Part shown: piece after piece, positions 18,645 to 42,279 of the stretch
How the letters are laid out: the number at the start of each line of letters is the position of its first letter
Numbering within the stretch: the stretch's first letter is position 1
Source: Vibrio lentus
Lineage (GTDB): Bacteria; Pseudomonadota; Gammaproteobacteria; Enterobacterales; Vibrionaceae
NCBI RefSeq assembly: GCF_030409755.1
Contig: NZ_JAUFQE010000002.1
Span: forward strand, 2,666,001 to 2,730,000
DNA: 64,000 nt
Reading direction: 5' to 3'
Notes under the pieces: model-generated
Database searches by the model: none
Told to the model about the DNA's origin: nothing
The model's input: only the letters and a program-made list of their open reading frames with translations
Made by a program: the position numbers and the translations under genes

Positions 18645-19352
18645 ATGAAACCTACTATTTTAGCCGTTGTTATCGGCATGACTGTCTCTGCGAATGTTCT
18701 AGCTAACGAAGAGTTCCGCTCTCACGAAGCACACGTGCACGGTAAAGTTGAAGTAAACATAGCTCAAGATGGACAAGAGCTGCTTGTTGAAGTAACGGCT
18801 CCCGGCGCTGATGTGGTTGGCTTTGAACATGCTCCAGAGACTGCCGAGCAGAAGAAAGTGTTTGAGCAAGCTATCGCGCAATTAAATAAGCCAGAAGAGC
18901 TATTTGGTTTCAACAATGCAGGCTGTACGCTGAAGTTCAAGTCAGTGACGAACACCTTGGAAGGCGATCATGATGACCATGAAGGCCATGAAGGCCATGA
19001 CCACGCAGAACACGATCATGACGACCACAAAGGCCATGACCACGCGGAACACGATCATGACGACCACAAAGGCCATGACCACGCAGAACACGATCATGAC
19101 GACCACAAAGGCCATGACCATGCTGAACACGATCATGATGACCATGAAGGCCATGATCACTCAGAAGGTGGGCACGGTGAGTTCACTGTCGAGTATCATT
19201 ACCAATGTTCAAACATTGCGAAGCTGGATACCGTTAACACCCAATGGTTCTCTAAATTCGGCAACACCAAGTCTATGACTGTGAACCTGTTAACTGACAG
19301 CGCGCAAATTCAAGAAATACTTAATGCCGAGCGTATTAGTTTTCAATTCTAA
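18645..19352 (+). CDS. zrgA: ZrgA-family periplasmic zinc-uptake protein (DUF2796)
   Basis: 235 residues: signal peptide of about 20 residues, then a domain with SHEAHVHGKVEVNIAQDGQ typical of DUF2796/ZrgA, a long His/Asp-rich linker (about residues 108-178) and a closing domain with conserved YHYQC. The linker has four copies of a 13-residue unit (HDHAEHDHDDHKG and variants). In V. cholerae the ZrgABCDE system is a second zinc-uptake route beside ZnuABC. The position behind a Zur operator and before an ABC pair supports the same role here. Confidence 0.88.
   Translation: MKPTILAVVIGMTVSANVLANEEFRSHEAHVHGKVEVNIAQDGQELLVEVTAPGADVVGFEHAPETAEQKKVFEQAIAQLNKPEELFGFNNAGCTLKFKSVTNTLEGDHDDHEGHEGHDHAEHDHDDHKGHDHAEHDHDDHKGHDHAEHDHDDHKGHDHAEHDHDDHEGHDHSEGGHGEFTVEYHYQCSNIAKLDTVNTQWFSKFGNTKSMTVNLLTDSAQIQEILNAERISFQF
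18996..19151 (+). repeat. Four 39-bp tandem repeats encoding a His-rich zinc linker
   Basis: Four in-frame copies of a 39-base unit coding HDHAEHDHDDH plus KG or EG, inside zrgA at about residues 118-169. Copies differ by a few synonymous bases (for example GCAGAA, GCGGAA, GCTGAA), so they are not all recent. The unit multiplies His ligands and can change in number by slippage without breaking the frame. Confidence 0.9.
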
Positions 19353-19491: not shown

Positions 19492-20208
19492 ATGTCTTTT
19501 GACAGTTCATCACTTGTGGTCAAACTCGAAAATATCAGCTTTCGTTGGAAGCCTGAATTATCCCCAACGCTAGAGATCCCCTCACTGCATATCCAAGCCC
19601 AAGAGCACCTTTTCATCAAAGGGCCTAGTGGTTGTGGGAAGTCAACATTATTAGGGTTATTGACCGGAATTAACCAAGCAGAGCAAGGTGAAGTTTCTAT
19701 CCTTGGCCAAGATCTCACACAGCTAACGCCTCGCCAGAGAGACAAGTTCAGAGCCGATCATATTGGCTATATATTCCAACAATTTAATCTGCTTCCTTAC
19801 TTATCCGTGATCGACAATGTGACGCTTCCTTGCCAGTTTTCAAAGATTCGTAAACAGCAAGTCACTGAAAGTCAGAACAGCCTGCAAGCCACCGCTCAAG
19901 AATTATTGCTCAGATTAAAGCTACCGCAAGCCTTAATGAACAAACCTGTTACTGAGCTGAGTATTGGTCAACAGCAACGTGTCGCTGCAGCTCGCGCTTT
20001 AATCGGCCAACCAAAGATCATCATTGCCGACGAACCAACATCGGCTTTGGATCATGACAACCGAGAAGCCTTCATCGAATTGTTACTCGAGCAAGCAAAT
20101 CAAGCCGGGTCTACTCTGATATTTGTCAGTCACGATCCAACATTAGAAAAGCTGTTCACTCGAACCATAGATTTAAAAACCGTTAACCAAGCTAAGGTTG
20201 TCGTATGA
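19492..20208 (+). CDS. ABC transporter ATPase of the Zrg-type zinc system
   Basis: 238-residue ATPase with Walker A GPSGCGKS at about residues 44-51, signature LSIGQQQR and Walker B IIIADEPTSALD. It belongs to the MacB/LolD-type branch that pairs with FtsX-like permeases rather than to classical ZnuC importers. Overlaps the permease gene by four bases. In the V. cholerae Zrg system an ATPase of this kind is required for zinc uptake; how such a mechanotransmission-type ABC pair serves uptake is not clear. Confidence 0.87.
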   Translation: MSFDSSSLVVKLENISFRWKPELSPTLEIPSLHIQAQEHLFIKGPSGCGKSTLLGLLTGINQAEQGEVSILGQDLTQLTPRQRDKFRADHIGYIFQQFNLLPYLSVIDNVTLPCQFSKIRKQQVTESQNSLQATAQELLLRLKLPQALMNKPVTELSIGQQQRVAAARALIGQPKIIIADEPTSALDHDNREAFIELLLEQANQAGSTLIFVSHDPTLEKLFTRTIDLKTVNQAKVVV

Positions 20209-21464
20209 AAGTAATTACTCACTTAGCCCTAAAAAGCGTACTCAACCGTAAAGCCACCGCTATTCTGACGATTCTCACCGTGGCAGTGTCAGTGATTCTA
20301 TTACTCGGTGTTGAACGTGTAAGAACCGAAGCAAAGAGCAGTTTTGCCAATACGATTTCAGGTACTGACCTTATCGTTGGTGGCCGTTCTGGTCAGGTAA
20401 ACCTACTGCTTTATTCAGTATTTAGAATCGGTAATGCAACCAACAATATCGACTGGAAAAGTTACGAAGAATTTAGCCAGCATAATGCCGTAAAGTGGGC
20501 GATACCCATCTCATTGGGAGATTCGCACAAAGGCTTCCGAGTTATGGGTACAAACCATAGCTACTTCGAAAACTATCGCTATGGAAGTAAGCAACCACTT
20601 ACTTTTCAGCAGGGTAAAGAGTTTAAACAGCTATTTGATGTAGTAATTGGGGCTGATGTCGCGAAGAAGTTAGATTACAAAATCGGTGATCACATCATTC
20701 TTGCACACGGTATCAGTGATGTTGCCTTTAGTCGCCATGATAACCTGCCCTTCACAATTGTCGGTATACTCGCGCCAACCGGCACACCAGTAGATAAAAC
20801 CGTGCATGTTTCGTTAGAGGCTATTGAAGCGATTCACGTGGGCTGGGAATCAGGAGCCAACCTAGGGCACACGCCAGATGCAGAAACATTAAAGACCTAT
20901 GATTTCCAACCTAAGCAGATTACCGCGATGATGGTTGGCCTTAAATCGAAAATCCAAACCTTTGCACTGCAACGAGAAATCAATAACTATCGCCAAGAAC
21001 CTTTGAGCGCCATTATGCCGGGTATTGCGCTTCATGAATTGTGGGGAATGATGGCCGTTGCAGAACAAGCACTACTGATTGTTTCAGGGTTTGTTGTAGT
21101 CGCGGGACTATTAGGAATGCTAAGTAGCCTACTGACTAGCTTGCAAGAAAGACGTCGAGAGATGGCCATTTTGCGTGCGATGGGAGCAAGGCCTCGCCAT
21201 GTCTTTGGTTTACTGATCAGTGAAGCAAGTGCACTGACCTTCCTTGGTATAACACTAGGGGTTGCAGTTTTGTTTGCCCTAATCGCAGTAGTTGCTCCTA
21301 TTGTGCAACAAAGCTATGGTATCAATATATCGATATCCGCAATCACCCCTCATGAGTGGAAACTGCTTATACTGGTACAAGTTGCCGGAATCATTATCGG
21401 CTTTATTCCCGCTTTCAGGGCTTACCGTCAGTCATTGTCTGATGGCATGACTATTCGAATCTAA
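20205..21464 (+). CDS. FtsX/MacB-type ABC permease of the Zrg-type zinc system
   Basis: 419 residues: one N-terminal membrane helix, a large periplasmic domain (about residues 40-270) and three C-terminal helices carrying the FtsX signature (LTSLQERRREMAILRAMGARP). This is the MacB/LolCE topology. It starts inside the ATPase stop (ATGA overlap) and is followed 14 bases later by a DUF3299 gene. Inner membrane partner of the ATPase in the operon. Confidence 0.87.
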   Translation: MKVITHLALKSVLNRKATAILTILTVAVSVILLLGVERVRTEAKSSFANTISGTDLIVGGRSGQVNLLLYSVFRIGNATNNIDWKSYEEFSQHNAVKWAIPISLGDSHKGFRVMGTNHSYFENYRYGSKQPLTFQQGKEFKQLFDVVIGADVAKKLDYKIGDHIILAHGISDVAFSRHDNLPFTIVGILAPTGTPVDKTVHVSLEAIEAIHVGWESGANLGHTPDAETLKTYDFQPKQITAMMVGLKSKIQTFALQREINNYRQEPLSAIMPGIALHELWGMMAVAEQALLIVSGFVVVAGLLGMLSSLLTSLQERRREMAILRAMGARPRHVFGLLISEASALTFLGITLGVAVLFALIAVVAPIVQQSYGINISISAITPHEWKLLILVQVAGIIIGFIPAFRAYRQSLSDGMTIRI

Positions 21465-30702: not shown

Positions 30703-30922
30703 TGTTATTTATAAATCGAATCCACTGCCCTATTTTTCTCACCGTAAACACCCGCTAATTCAATACCCAAACAGCACGACTCAAACCGTCAATCGATTTA
30801 AGTCCCCACAAAAAAACACTAATCAGCTGTAAGTTTTTCTCTGCTCCTCCTGTCTATTTAATTTACTACACTCAATGAATGGCCAATAAGCCATTCATCT
30901 ATAGGATAGATAAGGGTATTTG

Positions 30923-31510
30923 ATGAGCACCGTCGAGAGTATTCAAGCATGGTTAAATACAGGAGAAGAATCGCTGCTATGGCTGATGCTTGGCATTATC
31001 GCGCTTTCTTACTTGCTTGAAGATCTGGCGATTGTTACAGCGGCAGGTTTAGCAACTCAAGAGTTCATGCTTCCTCAATATGCGTTGCTTGCCATTTTCA
31101 TCGGCATTGCCACAGGTGATCTCGGTCTCTATTACCTAGGTAAATCAGGACGTTATTTCCGAGGCGTTCGTTACAAAGCCCTCACCAACCGATACTTTCG
31201 TGCACTTCGCACTAAATTACGTCAAAACGCTTTCAGCAGTCTTTTTGTCATCCGCTTTATTCCCGGGCTTCGTACCGTCGGTTTTACCTTAAGTGGCTTT
31301 TTCGCAATCCCACTGCCTACTTTCCTGTTTGCCGTTATTAGTGCCACTGCGCTCTGGACTGGCATTGTCTTCTCTGCCATCTACTATTTAGGGACATCAG
31401 CGTGGCTGCAAGCCTCTGAATATCAATGGATCATCATCCCGTGTGCCATCGCTTTGCTGTTTATCGGCAATCAATTAATGAATAGAACCTACTCTAGAGG
31501 ATTATCATGA
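30923..31510 (+). CDS. DedA-family membrane protein, first gene of a seven-gene operon
   Basis: The ATG at 30923 follows AAGGG at good spacing; a TTG three bases earlier is also in frame. 195 residues with five or so hydrophobic segments and the DedA/SNARE-associated core (GIATGDLGLYYLGKSGRYFRG and RFIPGLRTVGFTLSGFF, with the conserved Arg and Gly residues). DedA proteins include undecaprenyl-phosphate and phospholipid flippases; some act in envelope stress. Its stop overlaps the next ATG by four bases. Inner membrane. Confidence 0.87.
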   Translation: MSTVESIQAWLNTGEESLLWLMLGIIALSYLLEDLAIVTAAGLATQEFMLPQYALLAIFIGIATGDLGLYYLGKSGRYFRGVRYKALTNRYFRALRTKLRQNAFSSLFVIRFIPGLRTVGFTLSGFFAIPLPTFLFAVISATALWTGIVFSAIYYLGTSAWLQASEYQWIIIPCAIALLFIGNQLMNRTYSRGLS

Positions 31511-32052
31511 GTTCACCGCAAGATATTCGCATCATTCCAGCACATCAAATCAATGCAGGCATGCCCTTGCTTGAAAAAGATACCGTGCGCAGTGTCTCTC
31601 CTTATGAGTTTCTTCCAACTTGGTTCTTCTACACGCCAGTGGTGATTCAAAGCCTGATGCAAGGGTTACGGCACTTTGACTGGGCGCTACCGCTCATCGC
31701 CAACCCGAGTATTAAGTTAAGCGGTATGGTAGGCGAATCAAAACACGAGATACTGAGCCTTGCCGGATCATCGAGTCAGCGTTGGATCTCTCCGTTTATC
31801 ACCTTAACCAAAACGGATCTTAGCAGTAAGAAACAAGCCGAAGATGCGCGCAGCGCACTCATACAGTCGGATCTCGATTTCCCGATTGTGGCCAAACCGG
31901 ATCTTGGTTGTCGAGGTGTTGGCGTTAAGCTGATCAACACACAAGATCAACTTGAGCAGTATGTTGAATCTTTCCCAAATAATGCTCGCTTTCTATTGCA
32001 AGAAAAGGCGCCTTATCAAGCCGAAGCGGGTGTTTTCTATGTTCGCTACCCA

Positions 32053-32675
32053 AAAAAAATATCCGCCTTCTTAGAAGGCGGTTTTGCTTTATAACCCCCT
32101 AAAAGGGGGCGTCCGCGCTATCAGTTCTTCAATAACTGTAATTGTTGTTCATACTCTATGTCCTGCTTATCTTGGTGTCGTACATATCGCCGAATGACTT
32201 CTTCATTCACACCGACCGTATCTACAAAATACCCTCTAGCCCAAAAGTGATTTCCCCATAATTTCTTACGTATATGTGGGAATCTATTGAAAAGTCGAAT
32301 TGCTGTTCGGCCTTTTAAAACTCCTAACAAACTCGATACTGATAACTTGGGAGGAATAATGACAACAAGATGAACATGATCTGGTTGAACATTTAATTCT
32401 AAAACTTCGCAGTCTTTCATATTGCACAAAATATAGATTGAACGATAAAGCTCCTTTCCTACCTTATCTTTCAAAATCTTATATCTGTACTTTGGAGTCC
32501 AAACTATATGGTATTTGCAACGCCAATAGACATGTGATGAACTTCTGTAATCGCCCATGTGGTTGTTTCCTCTTACTTGTGGTGAATAAGAGGTTACTTC
32601 TAACATGGGCACTTCTTCAGGCTATAGCCTCAAGGAACAATCACCACCGCCCTAGGCGGTGGTTTTGAGGAGCCA
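32053..32675 (-). mobile_element. IS200-type insertion sequence (IS200/IS605 family)
   Basis: A single intact Y1 transposase gene is framed by subterminal hairpins and no terminal inverted repeats, the IS200 plan. On the right (the transposase 5' side) is a 9-base stem ACCACCGCC / GGCGGTGGT at 32643-32662; on the left are CCGCCTTC / GAAGGCGG at 32063-32081 and CCCCCTAAAAGGGGG at 32095-32109. Ends are inferred from where the host ATP-grasp frame breaks and resumes; each may be off by several bases because both flanks are A rich. No target duplication is expected for this family. Confidence 0.85.
32121..32558 (-). CDS. tnpA: IS200-family transposase TnpA (Y1 HUH)
   Basis: 145 residues from the ATG at 32558 (MGDYRSSSHVYWRCKYHIVW); the frame extends 18 codons further but this start matches the family and follows AAGAGG. 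HUH motif is HVHLVV, and the catalytic Tyr lies in the C-terminal helix near EEVIRRYVRHQDKQ. TnpA cuts and joins single-stranded ends of the element. The gene is complete, so the element may still be mobile. No tnpB accompanies it. Confidence 0.93.
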   Translation of the reverse strand: MGDYRSSSHVYWRCKYHIVWTPKYRYKILKDKVGKELYRSIYILCNMKDCEVLELNVQPDHVHLVVIIPPKLSVSSLLGVLKGRTAIRLFNRFPHIRKKLWGNHFWARGYFVDTVGVNEEVIRRYVRHQDKQDIEYEQQLQLLKN

Positions 32676-33281
32676 ATAAAAAGCAAGGCGAGATCATCTC
32701 GATCACACTCAAATACGCACCAATGGTGACGGGGAATGGTGCCTCAACACTCAAGCAGTTAATTGAAAATAGCCCGCGTGCTGGGCAGCTTAGTCACCTC
32801 TATCTACCGAGACATCAAGATAAATTAGATCAAGTGCTCGCAGAGGGCGAAGAGTTCCAACTCGCATTCGCAGGTAGCCATAGCCGTGGTTGTATCTTCC
32901 GAGACGGCAATCAATACATCACTCAGGCTTTAACTGAACGCTTAGATGAGATATTCGACGACTTCGATGGCTTTCACTTTGGTCGACTCGACGTCAAATT
33001 CAAGGACATGCACAGCCTAATGAACGGCGAGGACTTCACTATCCTTGAGGTCAATGGCGCAAGCAGTGAGGCCGGGCACATCTGGGATCGCAACACACCA
33101 TTGCGAGAGATATTTTCTACGCTACTCCTGCAATACCGCATTCTTTTTGATATTGGCGCTCAACAGAAACAAAGAGGCCACCAGCCTCCTTCTTTTAAGA
33201 GCTTATTTAACGCGTGGCAAGAAGAGCGACGTCTTGTTCAACAATATCCGACCACCGATTAACTTTGTACGAGGATCATGA

Positions 33282-33824
33282 ATGAACCCCATAGCCCAAC
33301 CGAGCGCCCTCACCTCTCTCTCTCCTAGTATCAAGGGAGCGGTAGAGATATTGAATCAGGGTTTAGAGTTTTTGTTAGCCATATCTGACAGCGACTATCT
33401 GACACGAGCAAAGCCGCACGTCACAAGTTCTATTGGTGAGCATACTCGTCACACGCTCGATCTTTTTCACGCTCTGATTTTAAAAGAGAATGCGACCGTT
33501 GATTACAACACTCGTCGTCGTGGTCACCCTGTCGAATTCGATAGGTCGATTGCGTTGAAAGAGATCCATTACGTGATCAACTGGCTTGAACGATTAGACC
33601 GTAGAGATCTCGAAGCGCCTATCATGATCCAAACCGAAGTTTCGATGGATACACAAGTATTTGCCAGCCTGCCTTCTACGCTAGAAAGAGAGGTTACCTT
33701 TGCTGCGCTGCACGCCAATCATCATTACGCGATGATCAAAGTGATCACGACCTTTCTTGATGTCGAAACATGCAACACCTTTGGTTATGCCCCAACCACC
33801 AGCAGCTATTTGAGGGAGCAATAA
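33282..33824 (+). CDS. DinB-like four-helix protein
   Basis: 180 residues, soluble, mostly helical. It shows the spaced histidines of the DinB/YfiT metal site: IGEHTRHTLDLFHAL near residue 50 and ALHANHHYAM near residue 148. Such proteins are often metal-dependent thiol transferases or of unknown activity. The ATG at 33282 has GAGG seven bases upstream. It lies 19 bases after the broken ATP-grasp gene and two bases before the next start, so it belongs to the same transcript. Confidence 0.78.
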   Translation: MNPIAQPSALTSLSPSIKGAVEILNQGLEFLLAISDSDYLTRAKPHVTSSIGEHTRHTLDLFHALILKENATVDYNTRRRGHPVEFDRSIALKEIHYVINWLERLDRRDLEAPIMIQTEVSMDTQVFASLPSTLEREVTFAALHANHHYAMIKVITTFLDVETCNTFGYAPTTSSYLREQ

Positions 33825-33826
33825 TC

Positions 33827-34576
33827 ATGTGTTCAGTATCTTGGCTACTTGAAGACAATGGCTATCAGGTCTTCTTTAATCGTGATGAACAAAAGACACG
33901 TGCACTGGCGATGCCACCTAAACAATATCGAGTTAACGGCGTCGATATCATCATGCCACTCGACCCAACCGGTGGTGGTAGCTGGATCAGTATCAATGAG
34001 TTCGGGCTTTCGTTATGCCTACTCAATAACTATCAAGGCATCGTACCTGATGGCCTTTTAGTCAGCCGTGGTTTGTTACTCAAGAACCTATCATCGAGTC
34101 GTAATATCAGTCAGCTCTCTGAAGCATTTCATAAGCTCGACCTGCACTCTTTTGCCCCATTTACCTTGCTGGCTTTCGCGCCGAACTTAACTCAACACCA
34201 TGGTTTGGTTATCGCCTATATGTGGGATGGCATTCAACAAAAAATAGTCGAAACCGATTCTCCACTGTTCTCATCCGGTGTTGATTTAGAGCGAGTACAA
34301 GCCTATCGACAAGCAAAATACGATCAGCTTATGGCAACGGGTAAGAATCAACAGAACTTACTTCAGTTTCACTCTCACCATCACAGCGAACAACCTCATT
34401 TAGCGACCTGTATGCATCGTGAAGACGCGCACACAGTGAGCTTTACACACTTACGCAATCTACACGGCCAAGCCTCGATGCTTTACGCACCCGGCTCGCC
34501 TTGTGAACCCATTAAACCATGCCAGATAAATCAACAGCGTTTTACCTTCGATTTATCACCAGCAATCAATCTATAG
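33827..34576 (+). CDS. NRDE/TANGO2-family protein
   Basis: The listed frame is longer, but the ATG at 33827 follows GAGGGAGC and begins MCSVSWLLEDNGYQVFFNRDEQ, which places the initiator Met-Cys and the NRDE motif (FNRDEQK) as in TANGO2 homologues. 249 residues. A second conserved stretch is GGGSWISINEFGLSLCLLNNYQ. Cys2 could act as an N-terminal nucleophile after Met removal. TANGO2 is linked to heme and lipid handling in eukaryotes; the bacterial function is unknown. Confidence 0.82.
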   Translation: MCSVSWLLEDNGYQVFFNRDEQKTRALAMPPKQYRVNGVDIIMPLDPTGGGSWISINEFGLSLCLLNNYQGIVPDGLLVSRGLLLKNLSSSRNISQLSEAFHKLDLHSFAPFTLLAFAPNLTQHHGLVIAYMWDGIQQKIVETDSPLFSSGVDLERVQAYRQAKYDQLMATGKNQQNLLQFHSHHHSEQPHLATCMHREDAHTVSFTHLRNLHGQASMLYAPGSPCEPIKPCQINQQRFTFDLSPAINL

Positions 34577-34588
34577 ATGGAGTCCATC

Positions 34589-35026
34589 ATGAGAAAACTA
34601 TTAACCATGGTCATGCTACTTGTTAGCCCATATGTATTTGCCGCCGATGAAATCTACACCGGATTCTTTAGCAGCAAGGCGCTCGATGGCTACGACACTG
34701 TGGCTTATTTCACTTCAGGTAAGCCTATTGAAGGCAGTAAAAAATTCAGCACCGAGTACAAGGGCGCGGACTGGTATTTTTCTTCTGAAAAGAATCTGAC
34801 TTTATTTGTTAATAATCCTGAAAAATATGCCCCTCAATATGGTGGTTATTGCGCTTGGGCTGTTTCAGCAAAAAGTGATTTTGCACCCGGTGACCCGAAT
34901 CAATGGACAATTGTTGATAACAAGCTTTACCTCAACTACGACCAAGAGATTAAACAGCGTTGGGAACAAGACCGAGCACAACATATTCAAAAAGCCGACA
35001 CCGTTTGGCCGCAACTGATCAAATAA
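34589..35026 (+). CDS. YHS-domain periplasmic protein
   Basis: The start at 34589 has TGGAG at good spacing; the in-frame ATG 12 bases earlier contains that site. 145 residues with a signal peptide (MRKLLTMVMLLVSPYVFA). The YHS domain reads LDGYDTVAYFTSGKPIEGS and PEKYAPQYGGYCAWAVS, with a single Cys in the place where YHS domains often bind metal. Secreted to the periplasm. Twelve bases after the NRDE gene. Confidence 0.82.
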   Translation: MRKLLTMVMLLVSPYVFAADEIYTGFFSSKALDGYDTVAYFTSGKPIEGSKKFSTEYKGADWYFSSEKNLTLFVNNPEKYAPQYGGYCAWAVSAKSDFAPGDPNQWTIVDNKLYLNYDQEIKQRWEQDRAQHIQKADTVWPQLIK

Positions 35027-35036
35027 GGGAATAACC

Positions 35037-35480
35037 ATGACATTCACTCCAGCTAAACATATCCCTGCGGCATTTATTGCGTTTGTGTTCATTCAGTCGC
35101 TATTTTTTAAGTTCACCGGCTCATACGAAACTGAGCATATCTTTGGCACCTTGGCGACATGGTCTGGCTTAAGTTGGTTCGGTTCATTTGGCGGCTACTT
35201 GATTGGGTTCGCTGAATTGATTGCGGCTATTTTGCTGTTTACTCGTTGGCATGGCCTAGGTGCCATCATAAGTGTGGGAATTATGAGTGGCGCTATTTTC
35301 TTCCACCTGTTTACGCCGCTCGGTATTCAAATGCCTGAGTTTAATGCAGCGGGTGAAATTGTTGGTTATGACGGCGGATTACTGTTTGGTATGGCATGCC
35401 TAGTGTGGCTGTGCGGTGCATTTTTAAGTGTGAAAGATTTCAAGAATCAAGACGGTTTCCTAAACAACTTTAGTCAATAA
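35037..35480 (+). CDS. DoxX-like small membrane protein
   Basis: 147 residues with four hydrophobic segments. The first carries FIQSLFFKFTGS and the second GFAELIAAILLFTRWHGLGA, the pattern of DoxX-type proteins. These are four-helix inner-membrane proteins of uncertain redox or quinone-linked role. It follows the YHS gene by ten bases and precedes the acyltransferase gene by twelve. Confidence 0.8.
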   Translation: MTFTPAKHIPAAFIAFVFIQSLFFKFTGSYETEHIFGTLATWSGLSWFGSFGGYLIGFAELIAAILLFTRWHGLGAIISVGIMSGAIFFHLFTPLGIQMPEFNAAGEIVGYDGGLLFGMACLVWLCGAFLSVKDFKNQDGFLNNFSQ

Positions 35481-35492
35481 GGTAGCTTCATT

Positions 35493-37247
35493 ATGATTGA
35501 TAGTCCTTTTCGTTTACCACGTTACACGCCTTTTGGTTTAGGTGAGTCTGTTGTCGAGTGGGCAACTGGGCTATCTAAACTAGATAAACTCTATCAAGAT
35601 AGACCTGATGAGTTGTCTAGTTTTGAATTCATGCATCACACCCTATCGGCTTTGAATATCGACTATTCTGTTTCCGCAGGCGCCACTGATAATATTCCTG
35701 AGGAAGGATCCGTAGTCATTGTAGCTAACCACCCGCTTGGCGCGATTGAAGGTGTGATCCTTGCTGATCTCGTAGGATCGGTAAGGAAGGATGTAAAGGT
35801 GTTAGCGAATGAACTGCTCAAGCGACTGCCTGAACTGGACGATCTTTTCATCGGGGTCGATGTCTTTAATAGTAAAGAATCGAAACGCACCAACGCTAAA
35901 GCCATTCGAGATGCCAATCGTCATTTGGCAGACGGTGGACTGTTGATTGTGTTCCCTGCTGGCGAAGTATCGAGTTACCGTAAAGGGGCAAAAACACTGA
36001 CAGATATCGAATGGAGTAAATCGGTTGCCAAGTTTGTTAAGCGTCATCAGGCCACTACGGTTCCTATCTTTATCAATGGTAAAAACAGCGAGCTTTTCTA
36101 TCAAGCCGGACGAGTTCATCCACTGCTAAGAACGGCTTTACTTGGGCGTGAACTTCTTAATAAACGAGCGACTACCATCTCTATCTCTATCGGCTCTTCA
36201 ATCCCATACTCAGAGATAAAATCGTTTGAACAAGAAATGGATATCGTCAACTATCTGCGACTCAATACCTATCTGATGAGTCAACAAGATAGCCCTAGCA
36301 CGCCAGTCCATGCGCCCTCTTTTGACACTCAGGTTATTGCGCCTATTCCATCAGAAGTACTCTCTATAGAAGTCGCGTCACTGCCTCAAGAAATGAGATT
36401 ACTTGAACAGGGAGATTTTGAGGTGTATTGCACACCAAGCCAGTCGATCCCCAATTTAATGCGCGAGATTGGTCGAGTAAGAGAAGAGAGCTTTAGAGAG
36501 GTCGGCGAAGGCAGCGGGCTTGCCTGTGATTTAGATGAGTATGACCTTTACTACCATCAACTGTTTGTGTGGAACAAAGCTAAGGCTGAACTGGTCGGGG
36601 CGTACCGACTTGGTATGGTCGACAAGTTGATCGCTGAGCACGGGCTTGATCAACTCTATTCCCGCAGTCTGTTTAACTACAATCAAGAATTCATCGATAC
36701 CTTAGACAACAGTATCGAGCTTGGGCGTTCTGTAGTGAGCAAGCCTTATCAAAAGAGCCTTAACTCACTATTACTATTGTGGAAAGGTATCGCGGCCTTC
36801 GTGTATCGTCACCCTCAATACACTCACCTATTCGGCCCAGTCAGTATCAGTAATGATTACAGCCACAATGCGCGCCTGTTGATCGCGACCACCTTATCAA
36901 TCCACCATTATGATGAGGAAAAGGCTAATCTGGTTTCTCCTTCTTCACCGCTCAATACCAGTAGTCATGTGTTCTGGCAAAATCACCTGTTATCGTCATT
37001 GGCGAGTGTTCCTCTGCTCTCTAAAGTATTAGCACGTATGGAGCAAGGAAAAGGCCTACCAGTACTACTGCGCCAGTATCTAGGGATGAACGGTAAGTTG
37101 GTGTGCTTTAACGTCGACCCATCATTTAATGATGCTCTGGATGGCTTGATTGTGGTTAACCTTAAGAAAGTACCACTGAAAACTCTTGGTAAATACATGG
37201 GTAGAGAACTTGCTCAAGATTATCTAGAACAGCACGCTCGACGCTGA
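35493..37247 (+). CDS. OlsF-like bifunctional acyltransferase (PlsC-like + GNAT-like)
   Basis: 584 residues in two domains. The N-terminal half (about 50-260) is a glycerolipid acyltransferase: VANHPLGAIEGV in the place of the H(x)nD motif (Glu rather than the usual Asp) and LIVFPAGEVSSY. The C-terminal half (about 300-560) is a GNAT-like N-acyltransferase (REESFREVGEGSGLACDLDEYD, LVGAYRLG, ELGRSVV). OlsF in Serratia has this two-domain order and makes ornithine lipid, with the C-terminal half doing the first, N-acylating step. Ornithine lipid synthesis here is a family-based prediction. Last gene of the operon. Confidence 0.8.
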   Translation: MIDSPFRLPRYTPFGLGESVVEWATGLSKLDKLYQDRPDELSSFEFMHHTLSALNIDYSVSAGATDNIPEEGSVVIVANHPLGAIEGVILADLVGSVRKDVKVLANELLKRLPELDDLFIGVDVFNSKESKRTNAKAIRDANRHLADGGLLIVFPAGEVSSYRKGAKTLTDIEWSKSVAKFVKRHQATTVPIFINGKNSELFYQAGRVHPLLRTALLGRELLNKRATTISISIGSSIPYSEIKSFEQEMDIVNYLRLNTYLMSQQDSPSTPVHAPSFDTQVIAPIPSEVLSIEVASLPQEMRLLEQGDFEVYCTPSQSIPNLMREIGRVREESFREVGEGSGLACDLDEYDLYYHQLFVWNKAKAELVGAYRLGMVDKLIAEHGLDQLYSRSLFNYNQEFIDTLDNSIELGRSVVSKPYQKSLNSLLLLWKGIAAFVYRHPQYTHLFGPVSISNDYSHNARLLIATTLSIHHYDEEKANLVSPSSPLNTSSHVFWQNHLLSSLASVPLLSKVLARMEQGKGLPVLLRQYLGMNGKLVCFNVDPSFNDALDGLIVVNLKKVPLKTLGKYMGRELAQDYLEQHARR

Positions 37248-40857: not shown

Positions 40858-41352
40858 ATGAAGAAGATACTCATCACTGTACTCAGCAGCCTTGCTGTAG
40901 TCTCTTGCGCTAGCACGAGCGATTCTGAACAAACCGGTTCATCATCAGATACCAACTATTCCCAACTATCACAAACTGCACTGATGGCAGCGGTGAATAT
41001 GTGGTCTCAACAAAATGAAACAACGCCACTTGCTGATACCGTTGCTGACCAAGCGTCTGTAACGAGCGATCAAGCTATCGGCGGAATCGGTTCAATGTTG
41101 GCGCTTGCACAAAATTCACTTGGCTCTGCCGACAATAAAGAACTTGCGACGCTTATTCCTGGAATGTCTTCACTTGAATCTACTGGCTTATCATCGGTTC
41201 TAAGCTCACAAGGTGCTGTTGAAAGTGCGTTTGCTGGGTTAGGTATGGATTCGTCAATGGTTACGACATTTGCACCAATCATTCTTCAGGCACTTCAATC
41301 ACAAGGTGCAACGAGTGGCCTTATGGATTCACTTGCCGCTATTTGGCAGTAG
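40858..41352 (+). CDS. DUF2780-like lipoprotein
   Basis: 164 residues with a lipoprotein signal (MKKILITVLSSLAVVSC, Cys17) and a low-complexity Ser/Thr-rich stretch after it. The rest (IGGIGSMLALAQNSLG, LIPGMSSLESTGLSS, ILQALQSQGATSGLMDSLAAIW) has the shape of DUF2780 proteins of vibrios, with no known function. Preceded by AAGGAAGAAT. It ends just before the repeat region at 41.43 kb. Confidence 0.78.
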   Translation: MKKILITVLSSLAVVSCASTSDSEQTGSSSDTNYSQLSQTALMAAVNMWSQQNETTPLADTVADQASVTSDQAIGGIGSMLALAQNSLGSADNKELATLIPGMSSLESTGLSSVLSSQGAVESAFAGLGMDSSMVTTFAPIILQALQSQGATSGLMDSLAAIWQ

Positions 41353-41355
41353 GCC

Positions 41356-41373
41356 TTAGCGATTAGCGATTAG
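41356..41373 (+). repeat. Short 7-bp tandem duplication (TTAGCGA)
   Basis: Two full copies of TTAGCGA plus a partial third (TTAG), directly after the stop of the lipoprotein gene. Same unit length as the much larger array 60 bases away, but a different sequence. Confidence 0.7.
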
Positions 41374-41388
41374 TTGAAGAATATTGTA

Positions 41389-41412
41389 AGGGCACTTCGG
41401 TGCTCTTTTTTG
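41389..41412 (+). terminator. Terminator after the DUF2780-like gene
   Basis: Stem AGGGCAC / GTGCTCT with a stable TTCG loop and a T6 tail, just upstream of the 7-bp array. Confidence 0.75.
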
Positions 41413-41433
41413 TGCATGAAAGAAAAGGGATTT

Positions 41434-41762
<329 letters not shown>

Positions 41763-41848
41763 TTTTGAAAAATGAAGCAGAGAAGGCAAGAATAAATGCC
41801 AAACATCGTGGTGCTAGTTTCTTGCTCTAAAGACACAAAATCCAGATA

Positions 41849-41878
41849 CAAAAAAGCCGAGCTAATGCTCGGCTTTTG
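41849..41878 (-). terminator. Terminator of the alpha operon (after rplQ)
   Basis: Stem AAAAGCCGAGC / GCTCGGCTTTT around TAAT, with A and T tails; on the minus strand it follows rplQ by about 20 bases. Confidence 0.9.
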
Positions 41879-41898: not shown

Positions 41899-42279
41899 TT
41901 ACTCAGCAGCTTCTTCAGCAGCTGGGCGGTCTACAAGCTCAATGTAAGCCATTGGAGCTTTATCACCAGTACGGAAACCACATTTAAGAATGCGAGTGTA
42001 ACCACCTTGGCGAGCCGCGAAACGCGGGCCTAGTTCATTAAATAGTTTTGCCACAACTTCGTTATCACGAGTGCGAGCAAATGCAAGACGACGGTTAGCA
42101 ACACTGTCTGTCTTAGCTAGGGTAATCAACGGCTCAATTACGCGACGTAGTTCTTTTGCTTTAGGCACGGTAGTTTTGATAACTTCGTGACGAACAAGAG
42201 AGCTAGCCATGTTGCTGAACATCGCTTTGCGATGACTGCTGTTGCGGTTGAGTTGACGACCACTTTTACGATGGCGCAT
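41899..42279 (-). CDS. rplQ: 50S ribosomal protein L17
   Basis: 126 residues, start [20 protein letters not shown], the universal L17 N-terminus. Last gene of the alpha operon, 24 bases after rpoA, followed by a strong terminator. Confidence 0.98.

What the first reader, a model, noticed from the sequence alone, without database searches (positions are those of the whole stretch)
30923..37247. Compact seven-gene operon of envelope/lipid and stress families with no described joint function
DedA-family protein, ATP-grasp ligase, DinB-like protein, NRDE/TANGO2 protein, secreted YHS protein, DoxX-like protein and an OlsF-like two-domain acyltransferase follow each other with a 4-base overlap or gaps of 19, 2, 12, 10 and 12 bases. 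Spacing of this kind is seen in the sequence; the joint role is inference. Membrane lipid (DedA, acyltransferase), possible metal/redox (YHS, DoxX, DinB) and peptide-ligating (ATP-grasp) families suggest a membrane-modification or envelope-stress pathway, perhaps centred on an acylated amino acid or peptide lipid. This is the best candidate for an undescribed system here.
Basis: partly seen in the sequence, partly recalled or inferred. Interest (0 to 1): 0.72.

Follow-up and report, generated by a model that had tools for sequence, protein, structure and literature searches.

The report
Ornithine-lipid operon with accessory membrane genes
A tightly packed run of seven marine-bacterial genes turns out to be one conserved unit built around an enzyme that makes a phosphorus-free membrane lipid, with a predicted ligase and a lipid transporter (fused in some bacteria) that may modify and move that lipid; in this strain the ligase gene is broken by a jumping gene.

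Summary
In detail: dedA, ATP-grasp, DinB-like, NRDE/TANGO2, YHS, DoxX-like and olsF-like genes follow each other at 30923-37247; an IS200/IS605 element splits the ATP-grasp gene. The set is a real unit: the same order recurs in Vibrio, Marinomonas, Aliivibrio and Photobacterium. In 150 Vibrionaceae genomes, 55 of the 62 with the ATP-grasp gene have olsF within 6 kb. Elsewhere separate olsB+olsA replace olsF (2 loci), and the ATP-grasp is fused to DedA (3 loci read). 'No described function' is only partly right: the cluster is orthologous to Vibrio cholerae VCA0651-0646, whose last gene is a demonstrated ornithine-lipid synthase (PMC12186959) and whose last four genes are a quorum-sensing-activated cell-death operon of unknown function (PMC11573629). 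The papers I found do not connect these results or give the dedA and ATP-grasp genes a role. An ECF-like promoter motif precedes the operon, and in some vibrios also msrAB and a VTT-domain gene. Best reading: a stress-inducible ornithine-lipid synthesis and tailoring operon in which an ATP-grasp ligase extends the lipid head group and DedA moves it. The ligase's substrate is inferred, not shown.

The parts
30828..30856 (+). ECF-sigma-like promoter motif TGTAAGTTTT-N14-GTCTA, 66 bases between it and the dedA start codon
   Evidence: Exact match, the only 0-mismatch site in the genome; looser form before dedA in 27 of 44 relatives. Promoter function is inferred.
30923..31510 (+). dedA: DedA/VTT-domain membrane protein, 195 aa
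   Evidence: Pfam VTT_dom 44 bits; E33, D34, D66, R111 invariant and R117 near-invariant in 32 sequences
31507..32054 (+). ATP-grasp ligase gene, 5' piece (the frame runs on into the insertion to 32094)
   Evidence: 98% identical to residues 1-185 of the intact 377-aa orthologue in L003
32055..32673 (.). IS200/IS605-type insertion, about 619 bases (edges uncertain by a few bases), with a terminator-like hairpin at 32063-32081
   Evidence: Edges by comparison with L002; hairpin -13.1 kcal/mol, z -2.5
32121..32612 (-). tnpA, IS200/IS605 family transposase
   Evidence: NF033573 159 bits, Pfam Y1_Tnp 143.5 bits
32674..33262 (+). ATP-grasp ligase gene, 3' piece
   Evidence: 97% identical to residues 182-377 of the L003 orthologue
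33282..33824 (+). DinB/YfiT-like protein, 180 aa, probable metal site
   Evidence: AlphaFold model closest to YfiT 1rxq; weaker matches include mycothiol S-transferase 8f5v and BstA 5wk0; invariant His
33827..34576 (+). NRDE/TANGO2-family protein, 249 aa, invariant Cys2 and R19-D20-E21
   Evidence: Pfam TANGO2 29.2 bits; conservation in 36 sequences
34589..35026 (+). secreted YHS-domain protein, 145 aa, invariant C88
   Evidence: NF041384 166 bits; conservation in 35 sequences; secretion judged by eye from the N-terminus
35037..35480 (+). DoxX-like membrane protein, 147 aa, optional member
   Evidence: MauE 19.1 bits, below cut-off; absent in 8 of 24 syntenic loci
35493..37247 (+). OlsF-like two-domain acyltransferase, 584 aa (predicted ornithine lipid synthase)
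   Evidence: Acyltransf_2 + Acetyltransf_5; 68% identical to the VCA0646-type protein in L150

Best explanation
The operon is a stress-inducible pathway that makes and tailors an ornithine lipid. OlsF N-acylates ornithine with its C-terminal domain and O-acylates the product with its N-terminal domain (ornithine lipid formation is shown for the orthologue VCA0646; inferred here). The ATP-grasp protein, a Ddl/cyanophycin-synthetase-like ligase with a moderately hydrophobic N-terminal helix, activates a carboxylate as an acyl phosphate and joins it to an amine on the lipid head group, giving a dipeptide-like aminolipid (inferred). The DedA-type protein, fused to the ligase in L180 and Azospirillum, carries the lipid across the inner membrane (inferred). 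The NRDE/TANGO2 protein is a Cys N-terminal-nucleophile amidohydrolase that trims or recycles N-acyl-amino-acid lipids (inferred). DinB-like, secreted YHS and DoxX-like proteins add metal/redox functions at the envelope (guess). An ECF-like promoter turns the unit on. In this strain the ligase gene is interrupted and the element brings a terminator-like hairpin, so the downstream genes may depend on internal promoters. My estimates: the genes form one functional unit about lipid, 0.85; the ligase acts on the aminolipid itself, 0.42 (lowered from 0.45 after one supposed fusion, L178, proved not to be one).
For: Conserved order at 42-77% identity in the Marinomonas-type loci L018-L022, L024, L025 and across Vibrionaceae. 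Starting from the ATP-grasp alone: 55 of 62 with olsF within 6 kb. Of 13 more distant genomes found through the ATP-grasp (6, 7), 7 have olsF or olsB near it. Separate olsB+olsA sit between ATP-grasp and yhs in L130 and L131 (Pfam). DedA and ATP-grasp share one open frame in L180, directly behind olsF, and in Azospirillum L181 and L186. The ATP-grasp model (pLDDT 88.9) is nearest to cyanophycin synthetase, then glutathione synthetase and Ddl (profile search). Distances between the six genes correlate at r 0.76-0.92 over 26 loci. VCA0646 makes ornithine lipid in E. coli and in V. cholerae at low salt (PMC12186959, passages); VCA0650-1, 0648-9 and 0646-7 fall together in an iurV mutant (PMC7600106, Table 1 passage). 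The human TANGO2 structure suggests a Cys Ntn hydrolase of fatty-acid derivatives (PMC13044924, passages).
Against: At least 36 genomes have an olsF row but no ATP-grasp (weak and fragmentary rows left out), so OlsF works alone. Six genomes of one genus have the ATP-grasp without olsF beside it; the three read keep dedA-ATP-grasp-dinB-nrde without yhs-olsF. Six of the 13 distant genomes have no olsF or olsB near the ATP-grasp, and four loci carry the ATP-grasp with none of the set on the same strand; the Azospirillum fusions have no olsF match beside them. In V. cholerae only plain ornithine lipid is reported in the passages seen, though label at the TLC origin is also mentioned (PMC12186959). 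The OlsF equivalog cut-off is not reached (435 of 620 bits). PF05742 gave no genome-level match in G000. The ligase's hydrophobic stretch is moderate (0.9 here). Distance correlations can reflect shared species history. No substrate was tested.
Confidence: 0.48

Rival explanations
1. A redox/thiol or small-peptide pathway: the ATP-grasp, DinB-like and NRDE proteins make and use a soluble peptide or thiol cofactor for envelope redox stress, and ornithine lipid is merely co-produced.
For: Weaker structural matches of the DinB model include mycothiol and bacillithiol S-transferases (E about 0.01); nearest ATP-grasp structures include glutathione synthetases; in some vibrios the motif also precedes msrAB; three loci read keep dedA-ATP-grasp-dinB-nrde without yhs-olsF.
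Against: Fusion of the ATP-grasp to DedA and replacement of olsF by olsB+olsA in place point to a membrane lipid; DedA would have no evident role.
Confidence: 0.26
2. Co-regulation only: the genes are independent envelope-repair functions held together by one stress promoter.
For: Motif before the operon and, in some vibrios, before msrAB and a VTT-domain gene; doxX comes and goes; gene order differs in L129, L144 and L176.
Against: The set stays together where the motif was not found, e.g. L115-L121, and in distant rearranged clusters.
Confidence: 0.14
3. A regulated cell-death module: OlsF with the YHS protein lyses cells at high density, the other genes modulating it.
For: [quoted passage not shown] the four-gene operon does so without the T6SS (PMC11573629, passages).
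Against: Same paper: deleting vca0646-0649 did not change the death pattern; Pfam shows no toxin-type domain in the seven genes. Overexpressed lipid enzymes may simply be harmful (inference).
Confidence: 0.08
4. A haem-handling unit through the TANGO2-like protein.
For: A Shewanella TANGO2 homologue, HtpA, is reported to traffic haem (PMC10470608, title and passages).
Against: A crystal paper and a cross-species paper argue against haem trafficking by TANGO2 (PMC13044924, PMC12782551, passages); I noticed no cytochrome-type gene in the seven.
Confidence: 0.04

Closest known systems
Vibrio cholerae VCA0651-VCA0646 (PMC11573629, PMC12186959, PMC7600106; passages)
   Same: Orthologous genes in the same order in L150: dedA, ATP-grasp, dinB, nrde, yhs, olsF, 52-68% identity. 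Four of six typed primers of PMC12186959 lie in L150, including the VCA0646 start and both VCA0649 reporter primers, and its ATP-grasp is 98% identical to an entry named V. cholerae.
   Different: No doxX match in L150; two papers treat VCA0649-0646 as a four-gene operon; our ATP-grasp gene is broken. Two primers were not found in L150, so L150 is V. cholerae or very near it.
OlsF pathway (bifunctional ornithine lipid synthase)
   Same: Acyltransf_2 + Acetyltransf_5 domains; orthologous to a demonstrated enzyme.
   Different: Below the NCBIfam equivalog cut-off; embedded in a larger operon, whereas the 14 solo Vibrionaceae OlsFs put in the tree form one nested clade (support 0.835).
OlsBA pathway
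   Same: In L130 and L131 OlsB-type and OlsA-type genes take the place of olsF.
   Different: No dedA match in the stretches read.
Cyanophycin synthetase / D-Ala-D-Ala ligase (ATP-grasp)
   Same: Best structural and profile matches.
   Different: 11-19% identity and query TM-score below 0.5 in the 50 rows shown; moderately hydrophobic N-terminal helix; DedA fusions.
TANGO2/NRDE proteins
   Same: Cys2 and NRDE-type motif (residues of human TANGO2 from PMC13044924 passages).
   Different: Low overall similarity (29 bits); substrate unknown in both.

Membership tests
OlsF (bifunctional ornithine lipid synthase) | N-terminal Acyltransf_2 and C-terminal Acetyltransf_5 in one protein | tested here: met
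   both above Pfam cut-offs
OlsF (bifunctional ornithine lipid synthase) | NCBIfam equivalog NF052615 cut-off 620 bits | tested here: not met
   435.2 bits; I therefore call it OlsF-like and orthologous to VCA0646, not a member of that equivalog
OlsF (bifunctional ornithine lipid synthase) | Makes ornithine lipid | not testable with these tools
   Shown for VCA0646 (PMC12186959, passages); 68% identity to the corresponding protein in L150
VCA0651-0646 operon | Same gene set in the same order | tested here: met
   Six of six genes in L150; doxX extra here
ATP-grasp ligases | ATP-grasp fold | tested here: met
   Model of the intact orthologue nearest to ATP-grasp enzymes; Pfam ATP-grasp hits on the 5' fragment are below cut-off
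ATP-grasp ligases | Intact gene in this strain | tested here: not met
   Split by IS200/IS605
DedA/VTT | VTT domain above cut-off | tested here: met
   44 bits, cut-off 33.9
TANGO2/NRDE | Pfam TANGO2 cut-off and Cys2/NRDE residues | tested here: met
   29.2 over 22.6; C2, R19, D20, E21 invariant, N18 near-invariant
TANGO2/NRDE | Match of PF05742 in a six-frame genome search | tested here: inconclusive
   0 matches at E 0.001 in G000, although the protein itself clears the cut-off; the similarity is marginal
DinB/YfiT superfamily | DinB-type helical fold with conserved histidines | tested here: met
   Pfam score below cut-off
DoxX family | Pfam cut-off | tested here: not met
   MauE 19.1 of 27; a relative in L177 scores 24.8 of 26.3 to DoxX_2; hence 'DoxX-like'
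ECF-sigma promoter | Recognised by an ECF sigma factor | not testable with these tools
   Only the motif is shown

The most novel reading that the evidence does not exclude
The ATP-grasp protein is a dedicated head-group ligase for acyloxyacyl aminolipids, working as a ligase-flippase pair with DedA (fused in L180 and Azospirillum), so these bacteria make an undescribed class of dipeptide-type ornithine lipids; and the bacterial TANGO2 homologue beside it is an amidohydrolase of N-acyl-amino-acid lipids, which would give a substrate class for the disease protein TANGO2.
Probability: 0.28. Interest if true: 0.85.

Novelty: new variant of a known kind. Interest (0 to 1): 0.62.

Why it matters
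It joins results that, in the papers found here, stand apart: an ornithine lipid synthase induced at low salt, a quorum-sensing-controlled death operon 'of unknown function', and a transcript set lowered together with copper, methionine-sulfoxide and ECF-sigma genes are one gene unit, and that unit has two more members (dedA and the ligase). It suggests why a reporter that starts at VCA0649 showed no induction (PMC12186959): that fragment begins at L150:7561, inside the ATP-grasp gene, and leaves out the region before dedA. If the ligase acts on ornithine lipid, a new lipid class and its transporter become testable; the standing link of a TANGO2 relative with N-acyl amino acid lipid synthesis offers a substrate class for a disease protein whose function is open.

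Tried and rejected
CpxR idea: a scan for GTAAA-N5-GTAAA in 45 dedA upstreams found no exact site; one-mismatch sites only in L022, L116, L120 and L121, and a shared weak site near -56 in L115, L116, L120 and L121; not taken as the common control. A Pho box was considered but not scanned for. ChrR-sigmaE: the published V. cholerae motif TGATC-N16-18-CGTAW (PMC5241685, passages) differs from ours, so the sigma factor is left unnamed. Motif as a wider regulon: 1-mismatch hits in bulk are at control level (12 sites against 14 for the reversed pattern in G000; 6 against 10 in G138; 3 against 4 in G544), so only the operon, msrAB and VTT-gene sites, which recur at orthologous places, are used; even there the regex found it before 3 of 8 msrAB and 5 of 9 VTT-gene loci, or 1 of 6 and 4 of 8 after leaving out loci first found through the motif, and before neither gene in the V. 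cholerae-like G544. Taurine-ornithine lipid (Gluconobacter, PMC4484230 passages): the two Komagataeibacter plasmids read carry the ATP-grasp but none of the set on its strand, so not pursued. Crp/Fnr-like, elaA and eamA genes after olsF: beside the cluster in Vibrio and Aliivibrio-type loci, no match beside the Marinomonas, L109-L114 and L150 clusters, so not counted as part of the unit. Bacteroidota-type OlsF loci: 41 of 65 loci show none of the other genes at tblastn E 1e-4 with the window's proteins. L178 was first taken for a DedA-ATP-grasp fusion (my notebook entry still says so); the frames differ, so it is not. Rows dropped: 15 near-identical or redundant Vibrio loci before (not all the same); 14 solo OlsFs before the olsF row; sequences with an internal stop or well under full length; weak and fragmentary OlsF rows before (97 of the 116 matching genomes were used). 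The 34%-identity OlsF type was not put in the tree.


Full report
WHAT IS THERE. The window is a stretch of a 5.9 Mb genome in three contigs, by its nearest OlsF matches a Vibrio of the Splendidus group (99% to V. tasmaniensis, 98% to V. lentus; the group name is recalled). Family assignments are in the observation check. The ATP-grasp gene is interrupted by an IS200/IS605 insertion of about 619 bases. In the 24 syntenic loci the two matching pieces lie only about 60 bases apart, so none of them has this insertion. The insertion carries a hairpin followed by a T-rich run on the + strand, so it may cut read-through from the promoter to dinB-olsF in this strain (inference).

A CONSERVED UNIT. 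A pattern scan of one genome per species with the OlsF protein gave 65 loci. In 24 of them (18 labelled Vibrio or Vibrionales, 6 Marinomonas) dedA, ATP-grasp, dinB, nrde, yhs and olsF stand in this order; doxX is present in 16 of the 24 (in L012 only a partial match) and missing in 8. The other 41, mostly Bacteroidota, show only olsF. Because these loci were found through olsF, the fairer test starts from the ATP-grasp: in 150 Vibrionaceae genomes it occurs in 62, and in 55 of the 62 an olsF match lies on the same strand within 6 kb (with positions). Of the other seven, one contig (G041) is 3,365 bases long and holds dedA-ATP-grasp-dinB-nrde, and six belong to one genus, Salinivibrio to judge by identical coordinates with NZ_CP114589; three of these six were read and keep dedA-ATP-grasp-dinB-nrde without yhs-olsF. 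At least 36 genomes have an olsF row and no ATP-grasp. L115 and L116 have the contig lengths of Aliivibrio sifiae entries, and L161 is the Photobacterium sp. GJ3 replicon by its length and coordinates, with olsF in two frames.

MORE DISTANT CLUSTERS. Searches with the ATP-grasp matched 11 of 369 genomes of the class (7 strongly, the window's own included, 4 weakly) and 14 of 398 of the phylum (7 in the genus, 7 outside). Of the 13 distant genomes with strong matches, 7 carry olsF or olsB near it, 8 dinB, 6 nrde, 6 dedA, 5 yhs, 3 doxX, and one none of them. In L130 and L131 the order is dinB-nrde-ATP-grasp-olsB-olsA-yhs: two separate proteins with Acetyltransf_5 (OlsB-type) and Acyltransferase (OlsA-type) domains take the place of the fused OlsF. 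In L129, L144 and L176 the order is ATP-grasp-olsF-dinB-nrde, followed by yhs in the last two. In L180 an olsF gene is followed by one 574-residue frame holding DedA and ATP-grasp (Pfam VTT 43 bits; same frame, no stop between). The Azospirillum proteins in L181 and L186, annotated 'VTT domain-containing protein', are the same fusion, without an olsF match beside them. A Variovorax plasmid has an olsB-like frame directly behind the ATP-grasp (25% identity, E 1e-19). Over 52 loci outside the Splendidus group that hold the ATP-grasp, dedA is near in 40, dinB 39, nrde 37, olsF 36, yhs 34, doxX 20 (this set includes loci found through olsF).

EVOLUTION. Distance matrices of the six genes correlate at r 0.76 to 0.92 over 26 loci; shared species history alone could give part of this. 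In a FastTree phylogeny of 55 OlsFs rooted on six Bacteroidota sequences, the deepest branches outside them are operon-linked, and the 14 solo Vibrionaceae OlsFs form one clade (support 0.835) nested among them. This suggests that the association is old and the solo form derived; one deep support is weak (0.344), the solo set is a sample, and the 34%-identity OlsF type was not included.

LINK TO PUBLISHED WORK. L150 carries the VCA0646 start primer and both VCA0649 reporter primers of PMC12186959 at fitting places (two of six typed primers were not found), and its ATP-grasp is 98% identical to a protein named V. cholerae. The cluster there is dedA-ATP-grasp-dinB-nrde-yhs-olsF, so VCA0649 is the dinB gene and VCA0646 the olsF gene; VCA0648, 0647 and 0651 as nrde, yhs and dedA follow by order, and PMC7600106 lists VCA0650-1 as 'D-alanine-D-alanine ligase, hypothetical protein'. 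Passages seen: PMC12186959 (VCA0646 makes ornithine lipid in E. coli and at low salt); PMC11573629 (HapR activates vca0646-0649; vca0646 with vca0647 raises cell death when overexpressed; the effect of the operon does not need the T6SS; deletion has no effect); PMC7600106 Table 1 (VCA0650-1, 0648-9, 0646-7 at log2 -2.94, -2.08, -1.98 in the iurV mutant, with cpxP, copG, VCA0615 msrB, VC1723 annotated COG0398, and VC1044-5 annotated with an ECF sigma factor). Searches for these locus names returned four papers each; in the passages seen none describes the six-gene unit or gives the ligase a role. That the unit is undescribed rests in an open-access library only.

REGULATION. Upstream of dedA, TG[AT]AA[AGT]-N18-[CG]TC[TA] occurs in 27 of 44 relatives, against 0.4 per set in shuffles and 1 of 44 on the other strand. 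The pattern was drawn after seeing some of these, and 13 of the 27 are near-identical Vibrio loci, but it also holds in six Marinomonas loci, L017/L126/L127, L109, L114, L122, L142 and L150. A stricter pattern has exactly three perfect sites in G138: the operon, an msrA-msrB fusion gene and a VTT-domain gene (Pfam); G000 has the same three places, two with one mismatch, among 12 sites against 14 for the reversed control. The wider check is mixed: 3 of 8 msrAB and 5 of 9 VTT-gene loci by regex, neither in G544. That these genes correspond to VCA0615 and VC1723 is by annotation only, not tested. Layout and spacing look like an ECF-sigma promoter; which sigma factor is unknown.

MECHANISM. Shown: gene content, order, fusions, predicted folds, conserved residues. 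From family knowledge: DedA proteins translocate lipids (recalled); ATP-grasp enzymes can condense ATP with a fatty-acid carboxylate to make amides through acyl phosphates (PMC11631085 passage); TANGO2 resembles Cys Ntn amidohydrolases such as acid ceramidase (PMC13044924 passages). Inferred: the ligase extends the ornithine lipid head group, DedA moves it, the NRDE protein trims it. Support for a membrane substrate is the fusion with DedA, the olsF/olsBA exchange, and a hydrophobic N-terminal stretch in the ligase (19-residue hydropathy 0.9 to 1.6 in five sequences, moderate). Roles of the DinB-like, YHS and DoxX-like proteins stay open beyond a metal/redox guess from invariant His and Cys.

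L178 was withdrawn as a fusion; the estimate for the ligase acting on the aminolipid fell from 0.45 to 0.42, the overall confidence from 0.50 to 0.48 and the novel case from 0.30 to 0.28.

Noticed in passing
41356-41851: A tandem repeat of several hundred bases, open in several frames (repeated ISYLVSR / TRYEIRD codes), between the gene at 40858-41352 and the one at 41899-42279.
   Followed up: no
18645-19352: A protein with a long His/Asp-rich repeat (HDHAEHDHDDHKG), next to an ABC transporter-like pair at 19492-21464; by eye it looks like metal handling.
   Followed up: no
L206 and L200 (G138:C2:712456, G142:C2:159618); L199 (G138:C1:1256613): The operon's promoter motif also stands just before an msrA-msrB fusion gene and before a VTT-domain membrane protein gene.
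   Followed up: yes
L159 (G077), L160 (G013), L161 (G072): Decayed or disrupted operons: L159 keeps dedA with partial ATP-grasp and olsF matches; L160 has the ATP-grasp match in three pieces; L161 has olsF in two frames.
   Followed up: partly
L183, L184 (Komagataeibacter plasmids): ATP-grasp relatives on plasmids typed as conjugative, beside an iron-containing redox enzyme gene, in L183 also a methyltransferase, without the other operon genes on that strand.
   Followed up: partly
L181, L186 (Azospirillum plasmids): DedA-ATP-grasp fusion proteins annotated only as VTT domain-containing proteins.
   Followed up: partly
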